64,000 nt of DNA from Chloroflexota bacterium (GTDB lineage Bacteria > Chloroflexota > Anaerolineae > Promineifilales > Promineifilaceae), in contig JAJRYT010000016.1 of the NCBI GenBank assembly GCA_024275635.1, positions 34,339 through 98,338 on the forward strand, written 5' to 3'. Below, in pieces: positions 10,701 through 49,855 of this stretch (positions are counted from its first letter, which is position 1; each line of letters starts with the position of its first letter). The translations under genes were made by a program, and so were the position numbers. The notes below the pieces were generated by a model. The model was not told the origin of the DNA. It ran no database searches and worked only from the letters and a program-made list of their open reading frames with translations.

Positions 10701-10791
10701 AAAACCTCAAGCAGTCGGGCCGGGTACAAAACTCAAGATATAGGAAAAATCATTTGGGCAATCTTGTAACTAAGTAATTATGTAATTGAGG

Positions 10792-10901
10792 GTATCTTCT
10801 CAATAAACTGGGGAGATTACAAAAGTTTTAACAACATATTGTCTGCATAGCGCCCGTTTTGAAACTTTTGTAATCTTTGCCCCGAAATTTTGAGAAGATA
10901 C
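10792..10901. mobile_element. MITE-like element, copy 1 (110 bp)
   Basis: GTATCTTCTCAATAAACTGGGG...CCCCGAAATTTTGAGAAGATAC. Terminal inverted repeats. Flanked by perfect 8-bp direct repeat AATTGAGG (10784-10791 and 10902-10909). Confidence 0.93.
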
Positions 10902-10951
10902 AATTGAGGCAACAAATTACTCAATTACATAATTACATAATTACGTGGTTC

Positions 10952-23334: not shown

Positions 23335-23482
23335 GCGTCAGAGTGTGCGGAACTTTTGTTGATGCGCCTTTGTCGCCGAATGAAATTCGACGCCTGAGAT
23401 ATGAAACGCGCTGCAAGCGCGTTAAAGCGCCTGTTCACCAGAGCCATTAGTGCGCTTTAGTGTACTTTTTGTAGCAGACTGG

Positions 23483-23592
23483 GTATCTTCTCAATAAACT
23501 GGGGAGATTACAAAAGTTTTAACAACATATTGCCTGCATAGCGCCCGTTTTGAAACTTTTGTAATCTTTGCCCCGAAATTTTGAGAAGATAC
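23483..23592. mobile_element. MITE-like element, copy 2 (110 bp)
   Basis: One substitution relative to copies 1 and 3 (ATTGCCTGCAT vs ATTGTCTGCAT). Perfect 8-bp TSD CAGACTGG (23475-23482 and 23593-23600). Confidence 0.93.
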
Positions 23593-23703
23593 CAGACTGG
23601 GAATTCATTCCTAGTCAATTGGGCGATCATCAACATAAATTCCGCGCACCCTAGGCGTCAAACGGGATTGTATATCGGCAATCAATCCGTTATCATGTTC
23701 ATT

Positions 23704-49658: not shown

Positions 49659-49693
49659 AAAAACCCTTATACCAAAATTTTCCTTTCACACAT

Positions 49694-49803
49694 GTATCTT
49701 CTCAATAAACTGGGGAGATTACAAAAGTTTTAACAACATATTGTCTGCATAGCGCCCGTTTTGAAACTTTTGTAATCTTTGCCCCGAAATTTTGAGAAGA
49801 TAC
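49694..49803. mobile_element. MITE-like element, copy 3 (110 bp)
   Basis: Identical to copy 1. Perfect 8-bp TSD TCACACAT (49686-49693 and 49804-49811). 35 bp upstream of the cdaA start. Confidence 0.93.
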
Positions 49804-49855
49804 TCACACATCAATAAATGCTTCCAAAACATAATGGGCTGTATTGGCAAATTAT

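What the first reader, a model, noticed from the sequence alone, without database searches (positions are those of the whole stretch)
10784..10909. 110-bp MITE-like element (copy 1) with perfect 8-bp target duplication
GTATCTTCTCAATAAACTGGGGAGATTACAAAAGTTTTAACAACATATTGTCTGCATAGCGCCCGTTTTGAAACTTTTGTAATCTTTGCCCCGAAATTTTGAGAAGATAC. The ends are inverted (GTATCTTCTCAA, then GGGG..AGATTACAAAAGTTT in both arms). It is bounded exactly by AATTGAGG on both sides. It has no coding capacity, so it would be a non-autonomous element mobilised in trans. With copies 2 and 3, the exact boundaries are proven by three different TSDs.
Basis: seen in the sequence. Interest (0 to 1): 0.75.

Follow-up and report, generated by a model that had tools for sequence, protein, structure and literature searches.

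The report
Mini jumping element mobilised by IS66
A 110-letter stretch of DNA that codes for nothing has copied itself to about 28 places in this bacterium's genome, and its ends match those of a known kind of jumping gene (the IS66 family), whose enzyme most likely moves it; it is a new example of an ordinary kind of genetic parasite.

Summary
Three 110-bp copies (10792-10901, 23483-23592, 49694-49803) lie in the window, each between perfect but different 8-bp duplications. The 5.7-Mb assembly holds about 28 copies or fragments. Of the 19 full-length copies at 99% identity or more, 13 have an exact 7-9-bp duplication, two more have 7 of 8 bases matching, and four have none.
About 1.75-kb elements with one gene, in Chloroflexota and other bacteria, begin GTATC(A/T)TCTCAATAA..GGGG at both ends, make 8-bp duplications and encode an IS66-family DDE transposase. 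In relatives of the same family, transposase C-termini lie about 20-30 bp inside the exact end TTGAGAAGATAC. This fits the ISBst12 group of IS66.
No transposase or fragment was found in the host's own incomplete assembly, so the host may carry orphan MITEs. The orthologous gap in a same-genus genome lacks the element. Insertions also occur at one fixed base of another repeat that has at least 30 empty copies.
The same ends flank several other palindromic interiors, and one helix is kept by compensatory changes.
This is a new member of a known kind, with modest interest.

The parts
10784..10791 (.). Left 8-bp target duplication AATTGAGG of copy 1
   Evidence: Sequence; identical to 10902-10909
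10792..10901 (+). MITE copy 1, 110 bp, IS66-type ends
10792..10803 (+). Left terminal inverted repeat GTATCTTCTCAA; with the next ~10 bases (taaactGGGG) it matches the ends of full-length IS66-family elements
10814..10829 (+). Left arm of the inner hairpin AGATTACAAAAGTTTT
   Evidence: Fold; compensatory changes in homologous elements
10861..10876 (+). Right arm of the inner hairpin GAAACTTTTGTAATCT
10890..10901 (-). Right terminal inverted repeat (reads GTATCTTCTCAA on the minus strand)
10902..10909 (.). Right 8-bp target duplication AATTGAGG of copy 1
23475..23600 (+). MITE copy 2 (23483-23592) with 8-bp duplications CAGACTGG; 1 mismatch to copy 1
49686..49811 (+). MITE copy 3 (49694-49803) with 8-bp duplications TCACACAT; identical to copy 1

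Best explanation
The 110-bp element is a MITE: a non-autonomous transposon with no gene, keeping only the ends recognised by an IS66-family transposase of the single-gene ISBst12 group. The transposase, supplied in trans by a full-length element, binds the ~12-22-bp end modules, moves the element and inserts it at a staggered cut that is repaired into an 8-bp duplication. Shown here: ends, duplications, absence of the element at the orthologous position in a same-genus genome, paralogous empty sites, and full-length elements with the same ends, duplication length and an IS66 transposase. Inferred: that this transposase moves the MITE, and that it was once or still is present in this lineage.
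For: Exact borders and different duplications in many copies. Full-length 1.72-1.85-kb elements with ends GTATC[A/T]TCTCAATAA..GGGG or close variants; exact 8-bp duplications on L213 (AATGGAGA), L223 (ATGAATTG), L212, L214, L198 and L209; L194 and L196 have the exact 12-mer at both ends. The protein matches PF03050 (E 6e-12, above cut-off), and columns fitting a D, D, E triad are invariant in 13 homologues. In G014, G016 and G030 (same family), transposase C-termini sit just inside TTGAGAAGATAC, mostly at contig breaks. G001 (same genus) lacks the element between the same two genes: gap 134 bp against 251 bp, and 251 - 118 = 133. Two insertions (C113, C145) with full duplications at the same base of another repeat that is uninterrupted in at least 30 places. 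24 of 33 insertions are intergenic against about 16% expected from random positions.
Against: No IS66-type transposase or fragment was found in the host assembly, which is about 94% complete and in 253 contigs, so present-day mobility is not shown. Four of 19 full-length copies have no duplication. Two of the full-length IS with exactly the MITE's 12-mer (L194, L196) have no matching duplication; the ones with perfect duplications have close variants (GTATCATCTCAA, GTATCTTATCAA).
Confidence: 0.93

Rival explanations
1. A different transposase, not of the IS66 family, mobilises the element and only shares similar ends.
For: No IS66-type gene was found in the host assembly. A decayed IS5-like transposase fragment lies about 240 bp from one isolated GTATCTTCTCAA end on C187.
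Against: Every full-length element found with these ends carries an IS66-family gene, though the search that found them started from that gene. I found no intact second end for the C187 end, so it is not shown to belong to the IS5-like fragment.
Confidence: 0.04
2. The repeat is kept because it works for the host (for example as an extragenic hairpin acting on mRNA), not as a transposon.
For: Strong hairpin, intergenic bias, and arms that covary between related elements.
Against: Different exact duplications at most copies, paralogous empty sites and absence at the G001 orthologous position show it spreads by insertion. Intergenic bias also follows from selection against gene disruption. The scan found no terminator-like site inside the element.
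Confidence: 0.03

Closest known systems
ISBst12 group of the IS66 family (e.g. ISDge4 of Deinococcus geothermalis, PMC12898284)
   Same: Single transposase gene, 8-bp duplication, similar ends (ISDge4: GTGACTACTCAGCA / GTAACTGCTCAGCA; here GTATCTTCTCAATA); DDE_Tnp_IS66 domain in the partner found here
   Different: The window element has no gene and is 110 bp; its exact partner is not in the host assembly
Bacterial MITEs such as MITEPsy1 (PMC3189936), MITECca01 (PMC9769881), MITEPye1 (PMC11578231)
   Same: Short, non-coding, inverted ends matching a larger IS; MITEPsy1 and MITEPye1 with target duplications; MITECca01 and MITEPye1 also mostly intergenic
   Different: Those papers link their MITEs to other families (probably IS5, IS982, IS1182). 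No IS66-derived MITE turned up in the open papers searched

Membership tests
MITE | Short, no coding capacity, terminal inverted repeats | tested here: met
   110 bp, ends GTATCTTCTCAA, no ORF of its own
MITE | Many copies with target duplications of fixed length | tested here: met
   About 28 copies or fragments; 13 of 19 full-length copies with an exact 7-9-bp duplication, mostly 8 bp
MITE | Shares ends with an autonomous element | tested here: met
   IS66-type elements in other genomes and transposase ends in the same family
MITE | Mobilised in trans by that element | not testable with these tools
   Needs a transposition assay
IS66 family / ISBst12 group (for the partner element) | DDE_Tnp_IS66 transposase | tested here: met
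   PF03050 E 6e-12, 45.9 bits over cut-off 23.1; NF033517 hit E 1.2e-30 but below its cut-off, 106.9 of 180 bits
IS66 family / ISBst12 group (for the partner element) | 8-bp target duplication | tested here: met
   L198, L209, L212, L213, L214, L223, L226, L227, L231
IS66 family / ISBst12 group (for the partner element) | Single ORF, without tnpA and tnpB | tested here: met
   One ORF of about 547-559 aa fills most of each intact element
IS66 family / ISBst12 group (for the partner element) | Phylogenetic placement among named ISBst12-group transposases | not tested
   No tree with named reference sequences was made; group assignment rests on gene content, ends and duplication length

The most novel reading that the evidence does not exclude
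These IS66-type MITEs are a modular family. A fixed ~22-bp end module is combined with many unrelated palindromic interiors, and the inner hairpin is itself under selection or renewed by arm-to-arm conversion, for example because a folded or cruciform form helps transposition or because the hairpin protects neighbouring transcripts.
Probability: 0.2. Interest if true: 0.5.

Novelty: new member of a known kind. Interest (0 to 1): 0.3.

Why it matters
It ties a set of short repeats scattered through genomes of this Anaerolineae family to an IS66-type transposase, so the repeats can be annotated and their mobility tested. The mix of constant ends and changing, covarying hairpins gives a natural data set on how bacterial MITEs acquire new interiors.

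Tried and rejected
PF03050, the transposase C-terminus and a 13-sequence transposase profile were all searched in the host genome without a match. The 110-bp sequence has no match in phage or plasmid records. No Rfam family matches the element; the only hit in the window is a tRNA. The IS5-like fragment on C187 was rejected as the partner because it is decayed and no matching second end was found. The viral contig scan gave no answer.

Full report
Observation. The element lies at 10792-10901 between two copies of AATTGAGG. Two further copies are at 23483-23592 (CAGACTGG) and 49694-49803 (TCACACAT); similarity between the three stops exactly at the ends. The end 12-mer occurs six times in the window against 0.17 expected. 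The strand folds far better than its shuffles (z -7.2).

Copies in the genome. The window is part of contig C135 of a 5.7-Mb, 253-contig assembly. A search with the 110 bp finds about 28 copies or fragments, nine of them identical to copy 1 and ten with one mismatch. Of these 19, eleven have an exact 8-bp duplication, one has 9 bp and one 7 bp; two have 7 of 8 bases; four have none. One 188-bp copy is an internal dimer with a perfect duplication (C187:3808-3995). The near-identity suggests a recent spread. The 110-bp type with its interior is otherwise seen only in G014 among 52 genomes of the family, at 79% identity.

Other elements with the same ends. The host also has elements of 63 to 133 bp with the same end module (GTATCTTCTCAA, GTAACATCTCAA or close variants at either end) and 8-bp duplications, but different palindromic interiors: C8, C65, C93, C113, C141, C162, C165, C206, C214, C17. 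Related genomes G001, G013, G014 and G015 carry more. G013 has at least 16 end matches and 795 first-look candidates.

The partner. In G030, contigs end inside an element that begins with the same end. Its reverse strand encodes the C-terminus of a transposase, and a longer homologous fragment in G014 matches the end of Pfam DDE_Tnp_IS66. A full-length homologue (L159, 556 aa from its first Met) matches PF03050 above the cut-off. A scan of public genomes gave 74 loci. Many are complete elements of 1.72-1.85 kb with one ORF and ends GTATC[A/T]TCTCAATAA..GGGG or close variants; nine have exact 8-bp duplications. D240, D367 and E480 (numbering of L194) are among the invariant columns of 13 proteins, as expected for a DDE enzyme. 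The single gene, the ends and the 8-bp duplication fit the ISBst12 group; a published member, ISDge4, has ends GTGACTACTCAGCA / GTAACTGCTCAGCA and an 8-bp duplication (PMC12898284).

Empty sites. In G001 (same genus) the two genes flanking copy 1 are conserved (72% and 68% identity); the gap between them is 134 bp against 251 bp here, and 251 minus 118 (element plus one duplication) is 133. The gap is too diverged for a base-by-base junction. Within the host, another repeat carries insertions at one fixed base (CGCCAAAG), by a 133-bp type on C113 and a 111-bp type on C145, each with a full duplication; 30 uninterrupted copies of that repeat were read.

Host setting. No IS66-type gene was found in the host assembly by three searches. 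Since other fragmented assemblies in the same searches did show fragments at contig ends, absence is plausible but not proven at 94% completeness. The class is Anaerolineae (Chloroflexota): G050, listed as same class, yields L159, which matches at 100% the record L188 titled Anaerolineae bacterium. A simple gene call puts 24 of 33 insertions between genes against 16% for random points; this call is crude and two of the loci (L025, L026) are the same site.

Hairpin. In the 105-114-bp types the two inner arms stay complementary through sequence change: 8 of 16 pairs show changes on both sides, 97.7% of cells pair, none of 500 shuffles reaches the score, and sliding by one base drops pairing to 50-57%. 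The eight arm pairs were picked and joined by me, and arms of one palindrome are complementary from birth, so only the homologous G013/G014 types argue for true compensation.

Judgement. It is a MITE moved by an IS66-type transposase, with high confidence. The kind is known; the member, its partner and the modular relatives appear undescribed in the open papers searched, which do not include most subscription journals or ISfinder.

Noticed in passing
L287-L316 (own genome, outside the window), e.g. L287: A second, more abundant repeat of about 123 bp, GGGTTCGTTCAAAATTAACTTTG...CAAAGTTATAAACGAACGTGCCC, with 40 scored matches and 205 first-look candidates, often between 3-bp A/T duplications (ATA, TTA, TAA, AAA); it looks like another MITE family. 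None in the window.
   Followed up: partly
L127:5087-5206 and L128:159-278 (G013): 120-bp elements with ends GTAACTACTCAGCC and 8-bp duplications, close to the ends of ISDge4; a further ISBst12-type MITE family.
   Followed up: no
L068:174-479 (G000 contig C187): Decayed IS5-like transposase fragment (named from its sequence, not by a family search) near an isolated GTATCTTCTCAA end at C187:706-717.
   Followed up: partly
L006:1480-1630 and L021:1480-1630 (G000 C91 and C233): Two copies next to the second repeat at or beside the same CGCCAAAG site but lacking a matching duplication on the other side, which suggests recombination between copies or deletion.
   Followed up: no
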